Below are positions 27,040 through 34,855 of a stretch of DNA of 64,000 nucleotides, piece after piece. The notes under the pieces are model-generated. The model had not been told where the DNA came from. It did no database searches and saw only the letters and a list, made by a program, of their open reading frames with translations. Each line of letters starts with the position of its first letter. Position 1 is the first letter of the stretch. Source of the stretch: Anaerocolumna cellulosilytica (lineage in GTDB: Bacteria > Bacillota > Clostridia > Lachnospirales > Lachnospiraceae); contig NZ_AP023367.1 of NCBI RefSeq assembly GCF_014218335.1, forward strand, positions 1,117,501-1,181,500, written 5' to 3'. Made by a program: the position numbers and the translations under genes.

Positions 27040-27654
27040 TTGGGGTACATAGAAAAACTTGTGAATGGGTTTGTTAATTCCAGCATAAAAAATAGTTGGG
27101 GCAGTTATAAGGGGAGTAAAGATATTACCTCTCATGAAAAAGATTATGTAGTCAAAATGCTTGATTTTATTGAAAAAGATAGTATCCGTTTTAGAACCAG
27201 TAATCTTTTAAAATGGTATATTGATAAAGCTGAAAGCAGTAAAAGAATGTACTATATATTTAACATTACAGCTTTGATATCCAATGCAGCCATACCCATA
27301 CTGGCACTTTCTAATAACAACGGTGAAGCCAAGATTTTTGTAAGTATTCTTGCTGCAATTGCCGGGGTTTCTTTATCTATAAATAATCTGGGGCATTATA
27401 AGGAGAACTGGACGAACTACCGGAAGTGTGCAGAGGGAATAAAACAGGCAGTTTCTGTCTATAGCATAAAAAAAGAAACCTATCTTACTCTTAATAAAGG
27501 TAAGAATGATTTAACGCCTGCCAATGAAAAGTACATAGTAAAATTAGAGCAAGAGCTTCTAACAGAAATTGATATGATTGTATCTTTAGAAGGAAAACGC
27601 TGGTTTGAAATCCATTCCAAGCAAGAGGAGGAAATGGACGCCAGTCAGCAATAA
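27040..27654 (+). CDS. SLATT-family (DUF4231-like) membrane protein, RADAR accessory
   Basis: 204 residues. Two adjacent membrane helices (about 74-94 and 102-118) sit inside an otherwise helical protein; the downstream NWTNYRKCAEGIKQAVSVYSIKK segment is the conserved SLATT/DUF4231 helix. SLATT proteins are predicted pore-forming effectors tied to nucleotide-signal conflict systems, and a subset of known RADAR loci carry one. RdrA and RdrB follow in the same orientation. TTG 27040 is preceded by AAGGGGGGAG. A weak TATAAA box at 26988 may serve it; the following gene has its own promoter. Confidence 0.8.
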   Translation: MGYIEKLVNGFVNSSIKNSWGSYKGSKDITSHEKDYVVKMLDFIEKDSIRFRTSNLLKWYIDKAESSKRMYYIFNITALISNAAIPILALSNNNGEAKIFVSILAAIAGVSLSINNLGHYKENWTNYRKCAEGIKQAVSVYSIKKETYLTLNKGKNDLTPANEKYIVKLEQELLTEIDMIVSLEGKRWFEIHSKQEEEMDASQQ

Positions 27655-28131
27655 AGCTTGCTTGCCTGTTTTAGGAGGTGAATACAAAAATATATGTAAT
27701 TCTACAACTGAAACCATAAGTTAATGCATCAATCAACATCTGCCATTTACCGAAAACAGGAAAAGCCCGGCTAAAATATAAAAAATAGAACAAAAACCTG
27801 GGGACAAATTATAATAAGAATAAGTTATCAGAAAAAAGGAATAATTACACACAGAGAGTAGATTGAAAGAAAACAATTTTAACTATCAAAGTAAATCTGC
27901 TAAAGCGGGCATAGGTATAAAGTCAACTAACTTTGGTGTAAAAAAGGATAAGCGGTTTGTTATTATCCTGACATTCTTTCACAATTGTATCATATAATAA
28001 TTCTGAGATGTTCTGCAATCCTTGTTTTGGATGCCACTCATTTCGGGCACGCATTGCAATATATTTACAATTGTGCTACAATAAAAATAACTTGTCCCTT
28101 TAAAGGTAAGGTGTCAGAAAGGTTGATGCAT
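27655..28131 (+). other. Gap between SLATT gene and the rdr operon
   Basis: 477 bases holding an orphan AGGAGGTGA site near 27673 with no usable ORF behind it, a 7-bp hairpin (AGGATAA/TTATCCT, 27945-27969) and the promoter at 28054-28082. The long frame through 27985-28131 precedes the promoter and has no ribosome site, so I do not count it as coding. Confidence 0.5.
28054..28082 (+). promoter_or_regulatory. SigA promoter of the small ORF-rdrA-rdrB operon
   Basis: TTGCAA (28054-28059) and TACAAT (28077-28082), 17 bases apart. Transcription would start near 28089, giving a leader of about 43 bases to the small basic ORF. Confidence 0.7.
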
Positions 28132-28473
28132 ATGAGTGCGGGAAAATCAAGTCAAAAAGCTTTTAAACACAAGGGGTATAAAACCAGTACTAAAAAAGGA
28201 ATGAAGTCATGTGTTACAGGGGAGTGTAAACACAAAGACCAAACCATTCCTGCAAGAATAGTGAATGAAAACAGTTTACTTCAATATAATGATCAGTCCA
28301 AGGTACAGTTGCCGGTCTACATTAAGGAAATGGCACAGAATATTGATGTAATCAAAGAAAAAAGATTTATTCAAAACGAAAAGCAGAACAACAACCCATT
28401 GTTAAAAGCGATACCGGTTGATGAAGGAAAAGTTATTGAAATTCTAGGTTATGCAGTACTAGAAAAGAATTAA
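28132..28473 (+). CDS. Small basic protein of unknown function, first gene of the rdr operon
   Basis: 113-114 residues (ATG 28132; 28126 is also possible), placed by AGAAAGG at 28116-28122. The N-terminal 40 residues are strongly basic (KSSQKAFKHKGYKTSTKKG) and contain CVTGECKH, a possible metal or RNA contact; the rest is mixed, ending in a compact KVIEILGYAVLEKN. I do not recognise the family. It is transcribed from its own promoter with rdrA 33 bases downstream, so it probably belongs to the RADAR system, as an RNA-binding, regulatory or trigger protein. That role is inference only. Confidence 0.6.
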   Translation: MSAGKSSQKAFKHKGYKTSTKKGMKSCVTGECKHKDQTIPARIVNENSLLQYNDQSKVQLPVYIKEMAQNIDVIKEKRFIQNEKQNNNPLLKAIPVDEGKVIEILGYAVLEKN

Positions 28474-28506
28474 AATTTAAACCATATGAATGAAGGGGGA
28501 GTATAT

Positions 28507-31500
28507 ATGGGGGGTCTTAATGATAGGAATCAGGAATTTAGATATGTACCAAAGTATAAGATGGGGATAAAAATCTTAACGCAGAAACAGTTGGCAAATG
28601 TTTTTCCTACCTACGACAATCTATTTGAAAGATTAGAGAATCATAGGAATGAAATATTTACTAGCAAAGTATGGACAGATTTAGGAGAACGTTATCAGTA
28701 CAATTTAATGTATGATAACGTTTTTTCAATATTTGGGAAACGGGGTACTGGTAAGACATCAGCTATTTTTACTCTAAAACACATGATTGAACATTCTGTA
28801 GAACATTGCTGTGATGTAGTATTCCCTATTATAATGCCTGAAATGATACCGGATAATGGAAACTTGCTAGGTTGGATTATGGCACTATTAGAGGAATCTA
28901 TAAGCAGGATAGAAGAAAAAATAAAAGCAAAACGTAATATAAGTACAGAAAGCAGCTTTTTTGATAACTGCCGATTTAATACGAATAATCCTTTGCGCAA
29001 GCAGTATAACTCTTTATGTGAACTATGTTTTTCTCAAAGCTATAACCCAATGGGGGAGACCTCCTTTTATGATGCTATCGGCAATTCGGCACAGCAGACA
29101 AAGAACAGCTATGCCTTTGCCAAAAATATTACCAGATTCTGGACAACCTTTGTTGAAGCGGTTATGGAGGCGAATGACATAAGTATCCAGATAGAAGCAA
29201 AGCAGCTGCCACTGCTATACTTCATCTTCGACGATGTGGATTTATCGCCGGACAAGGCAGAGCAGCTTCTTTCCCTGATAACCAAGTATTTGTCCCATCC
29301 AAATCTCATTGTGATTATTACAGCAGATGAAGAGATGTTTTTGGAGGTCTTAGAAAATAACCTGAACAAAAAAATCGGCAGAGGAAATACAGGGAAGGAG
29401 AACTGGGAAGTCATTCATTATTATGAATATCAAGAGATGGAGCAGGCAGTTACCCAGGAAAGAAGCAATAACATAGCTGCTTTATACCTGAATAAAGTGT
29501 TACCCCCTGCCAACAGTTACTATCTGGACAAATTCCTGGATTATAAAAAGAAAAGACAGTTTATCAATAAAGACAATAATCTGGAAATTGAACTAAATCA
29601 ATTGTTAAACCGTTTCATTGGTCAGGAGAATGAAAACGGTAAAGAGAATTTTTTATATTATAAAAATAATTTTATCAGCTTTTATCTCGCTTTTTTCGGG
29701 GATACTTCAAGACAACTCTCCAACGGTTATTTTATCTTGGAGGAGCTAATACAAAACCTCATTCATGAAAGTGAGGATTATACAAGAACAGGTAACACTC
29801 TACTGCTTCTTTCTAACGTGTTTCATCAGATAAAACATTTTTTATATAGTACACTACATGCCAATAACAGCATAGACATACCGATTGGAGAGATACAGCC
29901 TTTGGTCAGTAATTTATTTATGTATGAATATAATCAGTGGAAACTATATCTTAACTTCAGTTATCTCAACAAAAGATTTCATGAAATATATGCTGAACTT
30001 GTGAATAAAGGAAAACTAAACAGCCAGATACAGCAAAATCTTGCGTTATATGCACTGCTGTTTTTTACAGAGAACTTGCTGCTAATACTAAACCGGAAAT
30101 TAAACGGAAAACTTAATCCGAAAGGAAAGCAGCTGCATGGGTATAAAGAAATAACTAATTTTATGAACCGCTATCTGTTCAATGGAGCAATACTAGTAAG
30201 CGAAAATTGGGATAAATCCTCGGGATATTTTTTCTATCACTATGAGGAACTCATGCAGAATAATGTACTAAGGGCCTATGCAGATATATTTGAACCTAAT
30301 TTTATGTATTCTTATCTGCATTGCTTTTCCCTAAAGGTGGAAATTGAAAAGGAGATTACCAAAGCCCAGCTGGTGGATTGGTATCTACAGGATAAACAGT
30401 GGCTGTTAACAATTACAAAATTAATATATATAGCATATAGCAATATATATTTAATCGATCAGAATTGTTTAGAGCAGGTAGGGATTGCTTTTCGAATACG
30501 TTGTTCTTATTTAAAAACCATTGAAAAAGACATTACATGGTTTGTTGGAAATTATCTGGAGGGCTATGACTTTGTAGAAAAATCAAGAGAATTATTAAAT
30601 AACAGTCCGTTATATCTGAGTGAATTTACAAAAAGCATGGAGAATGAATCCAATGTAAGAGATGACTTTTGCAGAATGGTAAAGAACACCTTATTTAAAG
30701 AATCTAAGAATATGGTGACCTTAACCAATGTCGCCAATTTTATTAACGAAACTTTTTTAGATGATGACAATATGTTTACTAATATAAGCTTATTCTTAAA
30801 GGAAGACAGTTTGTTTCAAACTGGTTTTAATTTTTTAGACAATATTCGTGCCAACCGTATACTATTGAATTTAAAGTCTGATTTAATTACACTAGGTGAT
30901 AATTTCTTATATATAATTGTTATTGATACGGAGAAATTCATAGAAGGCATAACAATATTGCGGTCCTTAAACTACAGTAATTTCAATGTACGGTTAGAAC
31001 CTTATATAGAGGCCTTAAAAGGGAAGGAAAACGGTGCGGTTATTAATAAACGTGAGCTTTATGCCATACTGGAGGATGTGAGAAATTATCTGCTTAATGT
31101 TCGAAAAAATGATAGAGATGCAGTTAATTCAGAGACCTATGTGGTAAGCGTAGAAGCTTTTCATGACATACTGGACAGCCTTGACTATGGGGTAAATCCA
31201 GGTAATCTGGATAAGGCAATTGAATTTGTTATGAAAACCGAGTTGTATAAAGCCTTTATTCCACTATTCTTAAGTAGTTATGTCTTGAATTCCCATAAAG
31301 ACGAGCATCTTCTCTCCTATGAGGAATTACGGTACATTACTGCAATGGATACTGGACAGGCTGACAATAAAACAGAACATTATTATTATAAACTCTATCT
31401 GGAATTATGTAGTCTTCTAAAGGAAGAAAACTCCCTAAAAACCCAGGAGGAGGACGAGATTGTCCGTATTGAGAGTATAGACAATATGGAGAATATTGAA

Positions 31501-31878
31501 GTCATTACCTCCATACAGGAAATAAAAGAAGGAGAGCATGAACCGAAGGCAGATAACGCAGAATTAACTAAAATAGAAATACCAAAAAAAGAACCAGTAA
31601 GGATACAGGAGGAAGATAATTCAGGAGGTAAAAACAAAGAAGCAAAAATACAGGAGAAATCTAAGAGAAGGAAGCTGCTTAACCGGCATATTGATAATAC
31701 TACCACGTTACATGGTCAACTGGTGCAAGAGCATAAGAAAGTCCCTACAGAAGGAGAAGGTGAAAAATGGGAATATATGGGCAAGGAGTTTACCGATACC
31801 ATTAAAGATGCCATGCAGGATGCCATTAACCAGTACTACGCAAGAATAATACGAGGGATAGAGGATGAACAAATATAG
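28507..31878 (+). CDS. rdrA: RdrA, large P-loop ATPase of a RADAR antiphage system
   Basis: 1123 residues from ATG 28507 (site GGGGGAG inside the longer frame from 28486). Walker A is GKRGTGKT at residues 77-84 and Walker B YFIFDDVD with Asp242-Asp243; the domain is AAA/STAND-like. The middle 600 residues are helical and unassigned. Residues about 975-1060 are a charged, probably disordered linker rich in Glu and Lys, followed by a short helical tail. In RADAR, RdrA is the ring-forming ATPase that works with the RdrB deaminase to disable infected cells. The adjacent gene is RdrB, overlapping by 14 bases. The pairing drives the call more than RdrA alone. Confidence 0.85.
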   Translation: MGGLNDRNQEFRYVPKYKMGIKILTQKQLANVFPTYDNLFERLENHRNEIFTSKVWTDLGERYQYNLMYDNVFSIFGKRGTGKTSAIFTLKHMIEHSVEHCCDVVFPIIMPEMIPDNGNLLGWIMALLEESISRIEEKIKAKRNISTESSFFDNCRFNTNNPLRKQYNSLCELCFSQSYNPMGETSFYDAIGNSAQQTKNSYAFAKNITRFWTTFVEAVMEANDISIQIEAKQLPLLYFIFDDVDLSPDKAEQLLSLITKYLSHPNLIVIITADEEMFLEVLENNLNKKIGRGNTGKENWEVIHYYEYQEMEQAVTQERSNNIAALYLNKVLPPANSYYLDKFLDYKKKRQFINKDNNLEIELNQLLNRFIGQENENGKENFLYYKNNFISFYLAFFGDTSRQLSNGYFILEELIQNLIHESEDYTRTGNTLLLLSNVFHQIKHFLYSTLHANNSIDIPIGEIQPLVSNLFMYEYNQWKLYLNFSYLNKRFHEIYAELVNKGKLNSQIQQNLALYALLFFTENLLLILNRKLNGKLNPKGKQLHGYKEITNFMNRYLFNGAILVSENWDKSSGYFFYHYEELMQNNVLRAYADIFEPNFMYSYLHCFSLKVEIEKEITKAQLVDWYLQDKQWLLTITKLIYIAYSNIYLIDQNCLEQVGIAFRIRCSYLKTIEKDITWFVGNYLEGYDFVEKSRELLNNSPLYLSEFTKSMENESNVRDDFCRMVKNTLFKESKNMVTLTNVANFINETFLDDDNMFTNISLFLKEDSLFQTGFNFLDNIRANRILLNLKSDLITLGDNFLYIIVIDTEKFIEGITILRSLNYSNFNVRLEPYIEALKGKENGAVINKRELYAILEDVRNYLLNVRKNDRDAVNSETYVVSVEAFHDILDSLDYGVNPGNLDKAIEFVMKTELYKAFIPLFLSSYVLNSHKDEHLLSYEELRYITAMDTGQADNKTEHYYYKLYLELCSLLKEENSLKTQEEDEIVRIESIDNMENIEVITSIQEIKEGEHEPKADNAELTKIEIPKKEPVRIQEEDNSGGKNKEAKIQEKSKRRKLLNRHIDNTTTLHGQLVQEHKKVPTEGEGEKWEYMGKEFTDTIKDAMQDAINQYYARIIRGIEDEQI

Positions 31879-34855
31879 GATAAACCAGATTTTAAGTATT
31901 TTATTAATGCCTTATATTAATATGGAATTCTATGAAAAGGACAATCTGGCAGAGTTAGGAGTCAGATTCTATCATTTGTATCATACGGAAATCGGAAAAT
32001 ATACAGAACGAAAAAATTATAACAAATTATATGAAGATGCCAGGCAGCAGTTAATGGAATACATATGTACAAAAAGAGAATTTCGGCCGAAATCTCTGGA
32101 TGATGTGTTTTTATTACTGGAACTATATTATCCCCAGAATGAACTAAGAAAAGAGGTTGCAGCTTATCTTAACCAGTATCCGGAAAGTAGTATGCCGGAG
32201 AATGGAGTGTATTGTTATTACATAAAAAATCTTTTTAAATTATCGAACTCATTTTTAACCTTCCGGGACGGAGTAATTGCTATCCGCACTTGGAAAAACA
32301 AATACTCGCCTGCCTTTAAAGAAGATATACTGGGAGTCAGCAGAGCCTTTGATAAGGTAGAGATGTGGAATTCCTTAAGCCGGATAATGGTTCCGGACGT
32401 ATTGATTGCAGCTTTTTTTGTACTTTCTGATTTGGATATGCAATACCTTTATCAGCAGACCGGCACTATATCACTTGCAGATAAACTCTTATGGGAAATT
32501 CTGAAAAAGGGAGTGGCAGAAACACATCTTCATATGAATGCAGGTTTTGATTACAATTCCCTTTGGTTAAATGAAACCAATCCCTATACTTGGCTTTCAA
32601 TGGAATTGCAGATAGAGAAAAAGGAAATTTATTTATTACAGGGAATGATTTTCCGTATTCTTCTTGCCGAATATTTAACTGAAAAAGAGAGGGGGCTTGC
32701 TGATACTACTATTTTTTATTATATTCAAAGAACTTATGACAAAGAGCAAGGAGAAAAACTTATTGATATCCTGCTGGCCATGTATGAAGGAAAAATGCCC
32801 GCAGACATAAACTGGCGTATCCTCATAAAGGAATTGATAGATACAATTCTTAAGAAGGCAGAATGTAATTATACGAAAGAAACGAAGACGGATTTTTTGC
32901 TTACCACCTATTATAAAAATTATAAAAGCTATCAGACCTCTTCAGAACTTATATTGTTGTATCAGGCACTAAAATACTTAAAACAGGGAAAAGAAGATTA
33001 CATACTAAATAAACTCTTTATCCAGTATATAAGAATAAAGAATGAGTATTTTGGTGCTATCTTACAAAGAAGCTCTGTTCTGGGCTTGGAATATTTCCAA
33101 AGATTCTTCAAACAATCAAAGCTTCATATGAAAAAAGCAAAAAGCCAAGAAGCTTTTATAAAGGCAATATTTAAAACACAGTTTCAGGTAGAAAATATTA
33201 AAAAAATAGAACTTCGGATTGCCCCAGATATACCAGAACAAAGTCTTAGAAGCAACAGTTTAGAAATTGCTGAAATTAAAAAAAGAATGTTAAAGCAGGT
33301 AAAGGAAATTCTATCAACCTATCGGAATTATATCTACGAGCTTGTATTTGATCCTGCTACCTATGAAGCACTGATAAAAGAGGAACGGGCAATAGGAAAC
33401 TACTATAATATTCTTAAAAGGAATGAAACAAAAAAAGAACTGGCAGAAATACTTCTGCGAAATCCCGTTCATATTCCTACCATAGGTCTTGTATTTCATT
33501 TTATTAAAAGAAAGTCCACGGATAACATCTTAGGGGATGCCTGCTGGTTAAGCTACATAAATGGCAGTATGGGCTGGTCAAATCATAACCTGATTTGGAG
33601 GAGGCAATTACTCAACACTGCCTATGCCATTGAAGAAATGCGAAGTGAAGTTCCTTTTCTGAATCAATATATCGTCGGAATAGACGCCGCATCCAATGAA
33701 AATGATGCAGAACCGTGGATTTTTGCGCCGGTCTTTCGTACCATACGCTCCAAAACCTTAACCAAACCATTTATATTCCCCGAAGGAGGAACAGTTCCTA
33801 GTAAAATTCAGAACCTTGGTTTTACCTATCATGTAGGAGAAGATTTCAGACATGTTCTTTCCGGCTTCCGTCACATTGATGAGGTAATTGATTATTTTTA
33901 TTATAAGACAGGCGATCGATTAGGACATGCGATTGCTTTAGGTGTGGATTTGGGGTATTGGCTAAGGGAGAACGAAATTGTAGCCATGCCCATATTAGAA
34001 CACCTTGAGAATTTGTTATGGCTATGGGGAATTTTAATTTATCAGAATATAAAACTGCCGGTGAGTGCTGAGGCGGTAGAGGGACGGATTATGTTGCTGG
34101 CTAAACAGCTTTATGTCGATACTACCGGTATGAATGCATATATTCTCTATGAGGTATACCAAGATAAATTTCTGATTAATCAGGATGACATATTTCGTAA
34201 ATATAAGGCGATGATAGACCATTGCAGTGATAATAAGAGCGAGGAGAATTTAAACTGCAAGGAGCGTTCTGTAAAAGAAGAAGGAAGCTACTTTTGCCGT
34301 GAATATGACAGTTGTTATGATAATGGAAATAGTTTCTTATGGAATAAGGAAAAATTATTATGTACGTATTTTTGCCCGGTGTATGAGGAACGGTATTCTA
34401 AAGTAATTTTAATTGATGCAGGAGAATTTAGTTATGAATTATTAACTACCATACAGAACCATGTCAGGAATAAGATTGAGCATCTGGGTGTCTATGTAGA
34501 GACGAATCCGACGTCCAATACTTCCATAGGTGAAATAGAAAGTATCTATAAGCATTATATTACGAAATTAAACGGAGTGGATCAGCAGACAGAGAATAAA
34601 AAATTACCCAGTGTTCTGGTTACGGTAAATTCGGATGATCCCATTGTGTTTAATACCAATGCAGAAAATGAGCTGGCTTATATTTATCATGCTTTAGTGT
34701 ATGACGGGCACAGCAAAGAAACGGTTCTCAACTGGATAGATAAAATCAGAGAGTTCGGTATGTCCGGAAGCTTCATAAAAGGTGTTAAGGAGACGGGACA
34801 ACTTATCTATGAATTAAATGAAATTCTATCTTCTATTGATAAATATTTATGCTGA
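31865..34855 (+). CDS. rdrB: RdrB, divergent adenosine deaminase of a RADAR antiphage system
   Basis: 996 residues. The amidohydrolase/ADA metal and catalytic motifs are all present but widely spaced: ETHLHMN (His221, His223), YHVGED (His656, Glu659), DRLGHA (His688) and VNSDDP (Asp924, Asp925). In ordinary adenosine deaminases these fall within about 300 residues; here big insertions separate them, as in RdrB. Known RADAR deaminases act on adenosine in RNA and/or adenine nucleotides, giving inosine. Its ATG lies inside the end of rdrA (14-base overlap), so the two are translationally coupled. All expected catalytic residues are intact, so it should be active. Confidence 0.9.
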   Translation: MNKYRINQILSILLMPYINMEFYEKDNLAELGVRFYHLYHTEIGKYTERKNYNKLYEDARQQLMEYICTKREFRPKSLDDVFLLLELYYPQNELRKEVAAYLNQYPESSMPENGVYCYYIKNLFKLSNSFLTFRDGVIAIRTWKNKYSPAFKEDILGVSRAFDKVEMWNSLSRIMVPDVLIAAFFVLSDLDMQYLYQQTGTISLADKLLWEILKKGVAETHLHMNAGFDYNSLWLNETNPYTWLSMELQIEKKEIYLLQGMIFRILLAEYLTEKERGLADTTIFYYIQRTYDKEQGEKLIDILLAMYEGKMPADINWRILIKELIDTILKKAECNYTKETKTDFLLTTYYKNYKSYQTSSELILLYQALKYLKQGKEDYILNKLFIQYIRIKNEYFGAILQRSSVLGLEYFQRFFKQSKLHMKKAKSQEAFIKAIFKTQFQVENIKKIELRIAPDIPEQSLRSNSLEIAEIKKRMLKQVKEILSTYRNYIYELVFDPATYEALIKEERAIGNYYNILKRNETKKELAEILLRNPVHIPTIGLVFHFIKRKSTDNILGDACWLSYINGSMGWSNHNLIWRRQLLNTAYAIEEMRSEVPFLNQYIVGIDAASNENDAEPWIFAPVFRTIRSKTLTKPFIFPEGGTVPSKIQNLGFTYHVGEDFRHVLSGFRHIDEVIDYFYYKTGDRLGHAIALGVDLGYWLRENEIVAMPILEHLENLLWLWGILIYQNIKLPVSAEAVEGRIMLLAKQLYVDTTGMNAYILYEVYQDKFLINQDDIFRKYKAMIDHCSDNKSEENLNCKERSVKEEGSYFCREYDSCYDNGNSFLWNKEKLLCTYFCPVYEERYSKVILIDAGEFSYELLTTIQNHVRNKIEHLGVYVETNPTSNTSIGEIESIYKHYITKLNGVDQQTENKKLPSVLVTVNSDDPIVFNTNAENELAYIYHALVYDGHSKETVLNWIDKIREFGMSGSFIKGVKETGQLIYELNEILSSIDKYLC

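What the first reader, a model, noticed from the sequence alone, without database searches (positions are those of the whole stretch)
27040..34855. RADAR-type antiphage cassette with SLATT accessory
Two adjoining, overlapping genes encode an 1123-residue P-loop ATPase and a 996-residue protein with every adenosine-deaminase metal and catalytic motif (His221/His223, His656/Glu659, His688, Asp924/Asp925) spread by large insertions. A SLATT two-helix membrane protein precedes them. Known RADAR systems consist of RdrA and RdrB, some with a SLATT or Csx27-like membrane protein. All key residues look intact, so this should be a working abortive-type defence system in a Clostridia chromosome.
Basis: partly seen in the sequence, partly recalled or inferred. 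Interest (0 to 1): 0.85.

Follow-up and report, generated by a model that had tools for sequence, protein, structure and literature searches.

The report
RADAR phage-defence operon with SLATT gene
A Clostridia-type chromosome carries an intact-looking RADAR anti-phage system (an ATPase and a deaminase that, in known cases, turns ATP into ITP) with a small membrane protein nearby; the type is known, but relatives that carry an ITP-sensing, NAD-destroying protein in the same operon suggest the ITP may be a danger signal and not only a poison.

Summary
SLATT 27040-27654, a small ORF, RdrA 28507-31878 (1123 aa) and RdrB 31865-34855 (996 aa) lie in a row on the + strand, with all named deaminase and ATPase residues present. 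RdrB matches RADAR RdrB (E 3e-53) far better than adenosine deaminase (E 1e-4). RdrA matches RdrA weakly by sequence (E 7e-11), but its predicted structure has RdrA chains as its 19 best PDB matches. SLATT-linked RADAR is a published subtype, so this is a new member of a known kind, in a divergent clade below NCBIfam's naming cut-offs. The chromosome holds a second, distant RADAR.

The new part comes from relatives. In 3 of 84 related loci a fused KomB-KomC protein (HAM1 dITP-sensor fold plus SIR2 NADase, as in Kongming) sits at one end of RdrA-RdrB, as SLATT or a Csx27-like protein does in others. Two RdrBs 54% identical have KomBC in one genome and SLATT in the other, though both these operons have a broken RdrA frame. 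Kongming is triggered by dITP; RADAR makes dITP. I suggest, unproven, that in such RADARs (d)ITP is a second messenger read by exchangeable effectors, SLATT being one.

The parts
27040..27654 (+). SLATT two-TM membrane protein (204 aa, TTG start behind GGGGGGAG); proposed accessory effector
   Evidence: NCBIfam SLATT_1 69.7 bits > cut-off 41; Pfam DUF4231 58.2 and SLATT_1 27.9 bits, both above cut-off; two hydrophobic stretches by a simple hydropathy scan
28132..28473 (+). Small ORF (113 aa) between SLATT and RdrA, function unknown
   Evidence: 18/41 identical to an ORF before RdrA in L044, E 3e-11 for the single comparison; no Pfam match at E 0.01
28507..31878 (+). RdrA, AAA+ ATPase with long helical C-terminal lobe (1123 aa)
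   Evidence: NF041743 RdrA 41.4 bits, E 6.6e-11; AlphaFold2 model pLDDT 78; Foldseek: 19 of 19 PDB matches at E <= 1e-3 are RdrA
28735..28761 (+). Walker A, GKRGTGKTS (residues 77-85)
   Evidence: aligned with annotated Aliivibrio RdrA; G77, R79, G80, G82, K83, S85 at 90% or more in 36 RdrAs
29230..29235 (+). Walker B D242-D243
   Evidence: invariant in 36 RdrAs; aligned with annotated Aliivibrio RdrA
29710..29712 (+). Arg402, candidate sensor 2
   Evidence: invariant in 36 RdrAs; correspondence to E. coli R377 inferred
31865..34855 (+). RdrB, adenosine-deaminase-fold protein, predicted (d)ATP deaminase (996 aa)
   Evidence: NF041744 181.4 bits, E 3.3e-53; PADLOC RdrB E 8e-34; PDB 8fnw E 1e-25; Foldseek best 8 are 8fnv RdrB and 8hr7 RdrA-RdrB complex chains, E 5e-24 to 6e-20
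32525..32533 (+). H221-x-H223 metal ligands
   Evidence: invariant in 40 RdrBs
33830..33841 (+). H656..E659 (HVGE) metal ligand and catalytic Glu
   Evidence: invariant in 40 RdrBs; aligned with the E. coli RdrB chain
33926..33928 (+). H688 (GDRLGH) metal ligand
   Evidence: invariant in 40 RdrBs; aligned with the E. coli RdrB chain
34634..34639 (+). D924-D925 (SDDP)
   Evidence: D924 invariant, D925 >= 90% in 40 RdrBs

Best explanation
This is a SLATT-associated RADAR system. RdrA forms an ATP-driven ring that detects infection and docks on the RdrB shell (inferred from homologues). RdrB then converts ATP and dATP to ITP and dITP (shown for E. coli and C. rodentium RADAR, inferred here from intact residues). 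The inosine nucleotides stop phage replication at the cost of the cell. SLATT acts at the membrane as an added effector or regulator (inferred).
For: Family models, PDB sequence hits and structure searches agree for RdrB; family model and structure search for RdrA; family models for SLATT. Catalytic and ATPase residues are conserved. The pair overlaps by 14 nt, and 65 of 79 named loci have an ORF over 600 aa directly upstream of RdrB. Homologous SLATTs lie within five genes of RdrB in 6 of 84 loci, the window included. (d)ATP to (d)ITP activity of RADAR: PMC9994260 (section 7 part 1 of 4, sections 10, 13 and 14 read). SLATT-associated RADAR as a named subtype: PMC7699616 (passages).
Against: RdrA scores 41 bits against a curated cut-off of 600, RdrB 181 against 800; the cut-offs are narrow, since 8 other RdrBs given reach only 143-195 bits and 2 other RdrAs 183 and 83. 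PADLOC gives RdrA no RdrA match, only mad8 at E 2.6e-4; Pfam gives KAP_NTPase just above its cut-off; a PDB sequence search found no RdrA. Global structural overlap of RdrA with solved RdrA is low (TM 0.22-0.26). SLATT lies 852 bp from RdrA, and no homologue of it was found at E 1e-3 in the genome of the closest relative (L044, RdrB 52-54% identical), so it is not obligatory.
Confidence: 0.85

Rival explanations
1. Messenger model: (d)ITP made by RdrB is a second messenger. Exchangeable effectors encoded at either end of RdrAB read it: a KomB-KomC fusion (NAD destruction) in some loci, SLATT or a Csx27-like protein (membrane attack) in others, including the window.
For: A HAM1-SIR2 fusion sits with RdrAB in 3 of 84 loci (L031 19 bp after RdrB; L066 6 bp before the first RdrA ORF; L064 overlapping the long RdrA ORF). 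Best PDB matches are KomC (E 1.6e-52) and KomB (E 3e-37, 5e-42). The fusions have Glu-His where housekeeping HAM1 has Asp-Asp; the second Asp is also lost in all four KomB-like rows (His in three, Gln in one), and Met or Ala replaces the His of SHR in all seven. Sister RdrBs 54% identical carry KomBC (L066) or SLATT (L092). KomB binds dITP and activates KomC (PMC12948488, passage). SLATT was predicted to be a nucleotide-responsive pore (PMC7159879, passage).
Against: No KomBC in the window's genome at E 1e-20. No ligand is known to me for SLATT or Csx27-like proteins in RADAR. 56 of 84 loci have no recognised accessory, and the two-gene E. coli RADAR protects (PMC9994260). In the key sister pair RdrA lies in more than one ORF in both loci (L066, L092), and the accessory is upstream in one and downstream in the other, so those operons may be decaying and the position is not the same. 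Zero loci with two accessories is not significant (about 1.8 expected from the counts).
Confidence: 0.35
2. SLATT is a neighbouring gene with its own role, for instance with another defence module, and not part of this RADAR.
For: 852 bp separate it from RdrA; no homologue was found in the nearest RADAR relative's genome. One of the 3 non-self homologues in the order sample lies beside a TIR-like and an integrase-like ORF with no RADAR in the stretch searched, and another (G215) is about 2.5 kb from RdrA.
Against: Homologous SLATTs lie 10, 25 and 63 bp after RdrB in L092, L068 and L038 (L068 only by iterated profile). 2 of 3 non-self homologues are in RADAR neighbourhoods.
Confidence: 0.15
3. 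RdrB is a housekeeping or metabolic adenosine deaminase beside an unrelated ATPase.
For: Adenosine deaminase models match weakly (E 1e-4).
Against: RdrB model E 3e-53; Foldseek E 5e-24 for RdrB against 2e-4 for the best adenosine deaminase; RdrA-type partner upstream in relatives.
Confidence: 0.02

Closest known systems
RADAR (RdrA-RdrB), E. coli, C. rodentium, S. suis
   Same: AAA+ ATPase next to a large adenosine-deaminase-fold protein, same active-site residues, nearest fold by Foldseek
   Different: RdrA 1123 aa and RdrB 996 aa against 742- and 850-position models; 17% identity to E. coli RdrB in the structural alignment; far below NCBIfam cut-offs
SLATT-associated RADAR subtype (Gao et al. 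2020, as told in PMC7699616; the paper itself not seen)
   Same: SLATT membrane protein encoded near RdrA-RdrB
   Different: 852-bp spacer with a small ORF; a clade in which SLATT, Csx27-like or no recognised accessory alternate
Kongming (KomA-KomB-KomC)
   Same: deaminase, inosine nucleotide and effector logic; a KomB-KomC fusion is present in RADAR operons of relatives
   Different: the window has no KomB-KomC; in three relatives RdrA-RdrB stand where KomA would; KomB and KomC are separate genes in the Kongming-like loci seen
Cad1 (CARF-adenosine deaminase)
   Same: adenosine-deaminase-fold ATP-to-ITP enzyme in defence (PMC11645235, passages); Foldseek E 5e-4
   Different: activated by cyclic oligoadenylates through a CARF domain; no RdrA partner

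Membership tests
RADAR | RdrB: adenosine-deaminase fold with HxH, H..E, H and D motifs and large insertions | tested here: met
RADAR | RdrA: AAA+ ATPase with helical crown insertion and helical C-terminal lobe | tested here: met
   Foldseek 19 of 19 hits at E <= 1e-3 are RdrA, TM 0.22-0.26; five predicted helices at residues 120-222 between Walker A and the Walker B strand, where the crown would lie; crown charges not mapped
RADAR | rdrA directly upstream of rdrB | tested here: met
   14-nt overlap; relatives
RADAR | Score above NCBIfam RdrA and RdrB naming cut-offs | tested here: inconclusive
   Below both: 41/600 and 181/800 bits; all 8 other RdrBs (143-195) and both other RdrAs (183, 83) given also fall below, so the cut-offs do not define the family
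RADAR | (d)ATP to (d)ITP conversion on infection; heptamer and dodecamer assembly; phage protection | not testable with these tools
   needs the bench
SLATT-associated RADAR | SLATT-domain gene near RdrA-RdrB | tested here: met
   6 of 84 loci, window included; 2 of 3 non-self homologues in RADAR neighbourhoods
SLATT-associated RADAR | SLATT contributes to defence | not testable with these tools
   needs deletion
Kongming | KomB (HAM1-like) and KomC (SIR2) genes in the locus | tested here: not met
   no match in the window genome at E 1e-20; none among the Pfam results of the cassette and 10 flanking proteins
Housekeeping adenosine deaminase | Best match to adenosine deaminase models | tested here: not met

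The most novel reading that the evidence does not exclude
RADAR is, at least in Clostridia, a nucleotide-messenger immune system. RdrA senses phage, RdrB makes (d)ITP, and a swappable effector gene next to them reads it: a KomB-KomC NADase fusion in some operons, SLATT in the window, a Csx27-like protein in others. The KomBC-carrying operons would be natural RADAR-Kongming hybrids in which RdrA-RdrB replaces KomA.
Probability: 0.35. Interest if true: 0.85.

Novelty: new member of a known kind. Interest (0 to 1): 0.55.

Why it matters
What the accessory membrane proteins of RADAR do, and whether (d)ITP is a poison or a signal, are open as far as I know. The KomB-KomC fusions found in related operons turn this into a biochemical test: does the fusion's NADase switch on with ITP or dITP? 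If so, RADAR and Kongming join into one class of inosine-nucleotide signalling, and SLATT becomes a candidate (d)ITP-gated pore. None of the 9 RdrBs given to NCBIfam (window and 8 relatives) reached its RdrB cut-off, so such RADARs go unnamed by that model.

Tried and rejected
Housekeeping deaminase: rejected by scores. Kongming membership of the window: no KomB or KomC. Mutual exclusion of accessories as proof of a shared slot: 0 of 84 loci have two of SLATT, Csx27-like and KomBC, but about 1.8 are expected by chance from the counts, so I do not use it. Mobile element or defence island around the window: the 10 flanking proteins scanned are glycosyltransferase, O-antigen ligase, two polysaccharide-synthesis proteins, chemotaxis receptor, S8 protease and amino-acid-type ABC transporter parts (the rest of the window was not scanned); no tRNA gene in the window. 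Empty-site comparison: in the relative G784 the best matches of the two flanking genes lie far apart and L044's RADAR is elsewhere, so no clean empty site was found. No RdrB relative in the phage collection; 7 plasmid records, one annotated rdrB; 5 distant viral-contig hits not followed. A CRISPR array near the RAMP-RADAR operon was sought in 20 kb and not found. Promoter and terminator scan was no better than shuffles (44 against 39.5; 7 against 5.0). Co-occurrence in the phylum sample was uninformative: true RADAR only in the own genome of 398 (two other matches are short deaminase-like). Literature: ten searches, seen as listings and starts of abstracts; only 1 paper in the library holds 'Kongming', 'RADAR' and 'phage', and its passages treat the two apart. 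The primary Kongming and Gao 2020 papers were not seen, so I cannot say the link is unpublished.
Full report
OBSERVATION. On the + strand lie SLATT 27040-27654 (204 aa), a 113-aa ORF 28132-28473, RdrA 28507-31878 (1123 aa) and RdrB 31865-34855 (996 aa).

RDRB. NCBIfam RdrB E 3.3e-53 (181 bits) against adenosine deaminase E 1.3e-4 (21 bits); PADLOC RdrB E 8e-34; PDB E. coli RdrB 8fnw E 1e-25. The AlphaFold2 model (40-row alignment, pLDDT 85.5) has as its best 8 PDB matches two 8fnv RdrB chains and six chains of RdrB length from the 8hr7 RdrA-RdrB complex (E 5e-24 to 6e-20); the best adenosine deaminase is at E 2e-4. H221, H223, H656, E659, H688 and D924 are invariant in 40 RdrBs and align with the NCBI-annotated Aliivibrio RdrB. 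The NCBIfam cut-off of 800 bits is narrow: Halomonas 143, Streptococcus 154, the second own-genome RdrB 160, five other relatives 156-195.

RDRA. Sequence evidence is weak but specific: RADAR RdrA model E 6.6e-11, 41 bits, cut-off 600. PADLOC gave only mad8 (E 2.6e-4), Pfam KAP_NTPase 20.8 bits against a cut-off of 20, and a PDB sequence search no RdrA. The AlphaFold2 model (36 rows, pLDDT 78) has 19 PDB matches at E <= 1e-3, all from RdrA or RdrA-RdrB entries (8hr7, 8hr8, 8hra, 8hrb, 8fnt, 8fnw, and S. suis 8fnu), though TM is only 0.22-0.26 by query length. Walker A positions are at 90% or more, and D242, D243 and R402 invariant, in 36 rows. Five predicted helices (120-222) lie between Walker A and the Walker B strand, where the published crown would be (inference from PMC9994260). 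Most of residues 989-1078 are below pLDDT 50.

SLATT. NCBIfam SLATT_1 69.7 bits, above its cut-off of 41. In 392 genomes of the order, 3 other than the own genome have a homologue at E <= 1e-5. G064 has it 63 bp after RdrB; G215 about 2.5 kb before RdrA, with a 444-aa ORF and a 125-aa reverse ORF between. The third (G248) has it beside a TIR-like and an integrase-like ORF (names from my reading of the letters) with no RdrB in the 16 kb searched. With 14 non-self RADAR genomes in the sample, 2 of 3 has P 0.0035. No plasmid match.

RELATIVES. The order sample and a scan of genome contigs (185 relatives, best 80 kept, 79 loci) plus the window gave 95 loci. I removed 7 duplicates (judged by identical gene lengths) and 4 loci with an RdrB ORF under 740 aa, leaving 84, one RdrB each. 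Within 5 genes of RdrB: Csx27-like 15, SLATT 6, KomB-KomC fusion 3, another TM protein 2, LRR protein 2, none recognised 56. Limits of these labels: of the Csx27-like, 11 form a BLAST cluster and L070, L076 (E 2e-4), L079 and L107 joined only by iterated profile; PADLOC Csx27 matched L048, L030 and L061 (E 3e-6, 8e-8, 6e-10) but not L079, the fourth member given; L039's copy is two ORFs away from RdrA. Of the SLATTs, L045 and L068 joined only by iterated profile and are below the Pfam DUF4231 cut-off (21.7 and 16.7 bits against 24.7). Of the 28 loci with an accessory all but L070 have it on the same strand, upstream in some and downstream in others. A quick tree (SH-aLRT, 87 rows) puts the window RdrB with L044 (100) inside an 18-row set (99) holding Csx27 8, none 7, SLATT 3. 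Sisters differ in accessory: L068 SLATT and L030 Csx27-like (100); L066 KomBC and L092 SLATT (100; 54% identity over 966 columns). SLATT needs 5 changes for 6 rows and KomBC 3 for 3, so these are gained or lost repeatedly; the Csx27-like label is more clustered than shuffles (10 changes, shuffled mean 14.1, 0 of 500 as low).

KOMB-KOMC FUSIONS. L031 (488 aa), L066 (467 aa) and L064 (569 aa) join a HAM1 and a SIR2 part (Pfam Ham1p_like E 2e-36 and SIR2_2 E 6e-26 for L031, the only one given to Pfam; all three match SIR2-type NADase models in PADLOC). The PDB best match of the L031 SIR2 part is KomC (E 1.6e-52) and of its HAM1 part KomB (E 3e-37); the L066 HAM1 part hits KomB at E 5e-42. The SIR2 GAG, TTN and HGD motifs are kept in all three; the His of HGD is the one changed in the deposited KomC H146N entry. 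The second Asp of the housekeeping ADD[S/T]G motif is His in the three fusions and in three of four KomB-like rows (Gln in the fourth), and the His of SHR is Met or Ala in all seven. The housekeeping HAM1 rows keep both motifs in 18 of 20 rows (two of the 18 are one gene; the other two, L143 and L144, align badly). That this Asp is catalytic in HAM1 enzymes is recalled, not tested. The RdrBs beside the fusions keep the catalytic residues. In other loci the parts are separate genes: adjacent HAM1 and SIR2 matches in 3 genomes of the 398-genome phylum sample (G616, G730, G770; in L160 my ORF caller missed the SIR2 ORF), and the 30 plasmid rows listed of 200, one with an annotated adenosine deaminase gene in front. 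Four more phylum genomes (G746, G782, G674, G402) have the SIR2 part with no HAM1 ORF in the 14 kb read. In the order sample the only KomBC match at E <= 1e-30 in 392 genomes is the RADAR-linked one, 19 bp from RdrB. Against: RdrA is in two ORFs in L066 (590 and 525 aa) and in pieces in L092, so these two operons may be broken; L031 and L064 have one RdrA ORF each.

MECHANISM. Shown elsewhere: RADAR makes ITP and dITP on infection, both active sites are needed, and RdrB alone deaminates ATP and dATP (PMC9994260, section 13). Kongming's dITP binds KomB and activates the KomC NADase (PMC12948488, passage). SLATT has been predicted to be a nucleotide-responsive pore (PMC7159879, passage). Inferred: the window system senses phage by RdrA, makes (d)ITP by RdrB, and SLATT adds a membrane effect. 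The bolder reading is that (d)ITP is itself the signal that SLATT reads; the KomBC fusions make this testable but do not prove it.

KNOWN OR NEW. SLATT-associated RADAR is published (PMC7699616 passage; PMC11676413 passage). The window cassette is a new member. A RADAR operon carrying KomB-KomC did not appear in the listings or passages of my ten searches (named under Tried and rejected), but the primary papers on Kongming and on RADAR's discovery were not seen.

CHECK.

Noticed in passing
L029 8951-14559 (G000:C1 about 322.9-328.6 kb): The same chromosome carries a second, distant RADAR (RdrB 933 aa, RdrA 930 aa) with a 161-aa ORF of no Pfam match in front; it groups apart from the window RdrB in the tree.
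   Followed up: partly
L031 7480-8946; L066 5181-6584; L064 4166-5875: KomB-KomC (HAM1-SIR2) fusion genes in RADAR operons.
   Followed up: yes
L097 1-13270 and L191 5289-20000 (Peptostreptococcaceae MAG): RdrA-RdrB at the end of a long run of genes with CRISPR-type RAMP proteins (two TIGR03986 above cut-off, Csx10- and Csx7-type matches below it); no array found nearby.
   Followed up: partly
L037 864-5601: RdrB followed after 17 bp by a nucleotidyltransferase-like ORF (matches below cut-off) and a TIR-STING ORF, i.e. a CBASS-like pair at the end of a RADAR operon.
   Followed up: partly
L042 9868-13119; L116 11053-14049: Large leucine-rich-repeat protein, in L116 with a Roc GTPase match just below cut-off, directly after RdrB in two sister loci.
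   Followed up: partly
G787 (L092, L070, L193) and G785 (L064, L097, L107): Two genomes with three RADAR-type RdrBs each, with different accessories; in G787 two lie about 4.5 kb apart with reverse-strand Csx27-like genes.
   Followed up: partly
L066, L092, L038, L101, L108: RdrA lies in two or more ORFs, one case (L092) in a complete genome; break or real split not decided.
   Followed up: no
window 28132-28473 and small ORFs before RdrA in L030, L044-L047, L049-L051, L063: Several members of the window's clade have a 66-130 aa ORF just before RdrA; only window with L044, and L049 with L050, were found alike.
   Followed up: partly
L054 5820-6773: A TIR-like ORF (26.4 bits, below the 28-bit cut-off) 58 bp before RdrA in a locus that also has a Csx27-like gene.
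   Followed up: no
L197 7890-9045 (G248): A SLATT gene next to a TIR-like ORF and near an integrase-like ORF, no RdrB found in the 16 kb.
   Followed up: no
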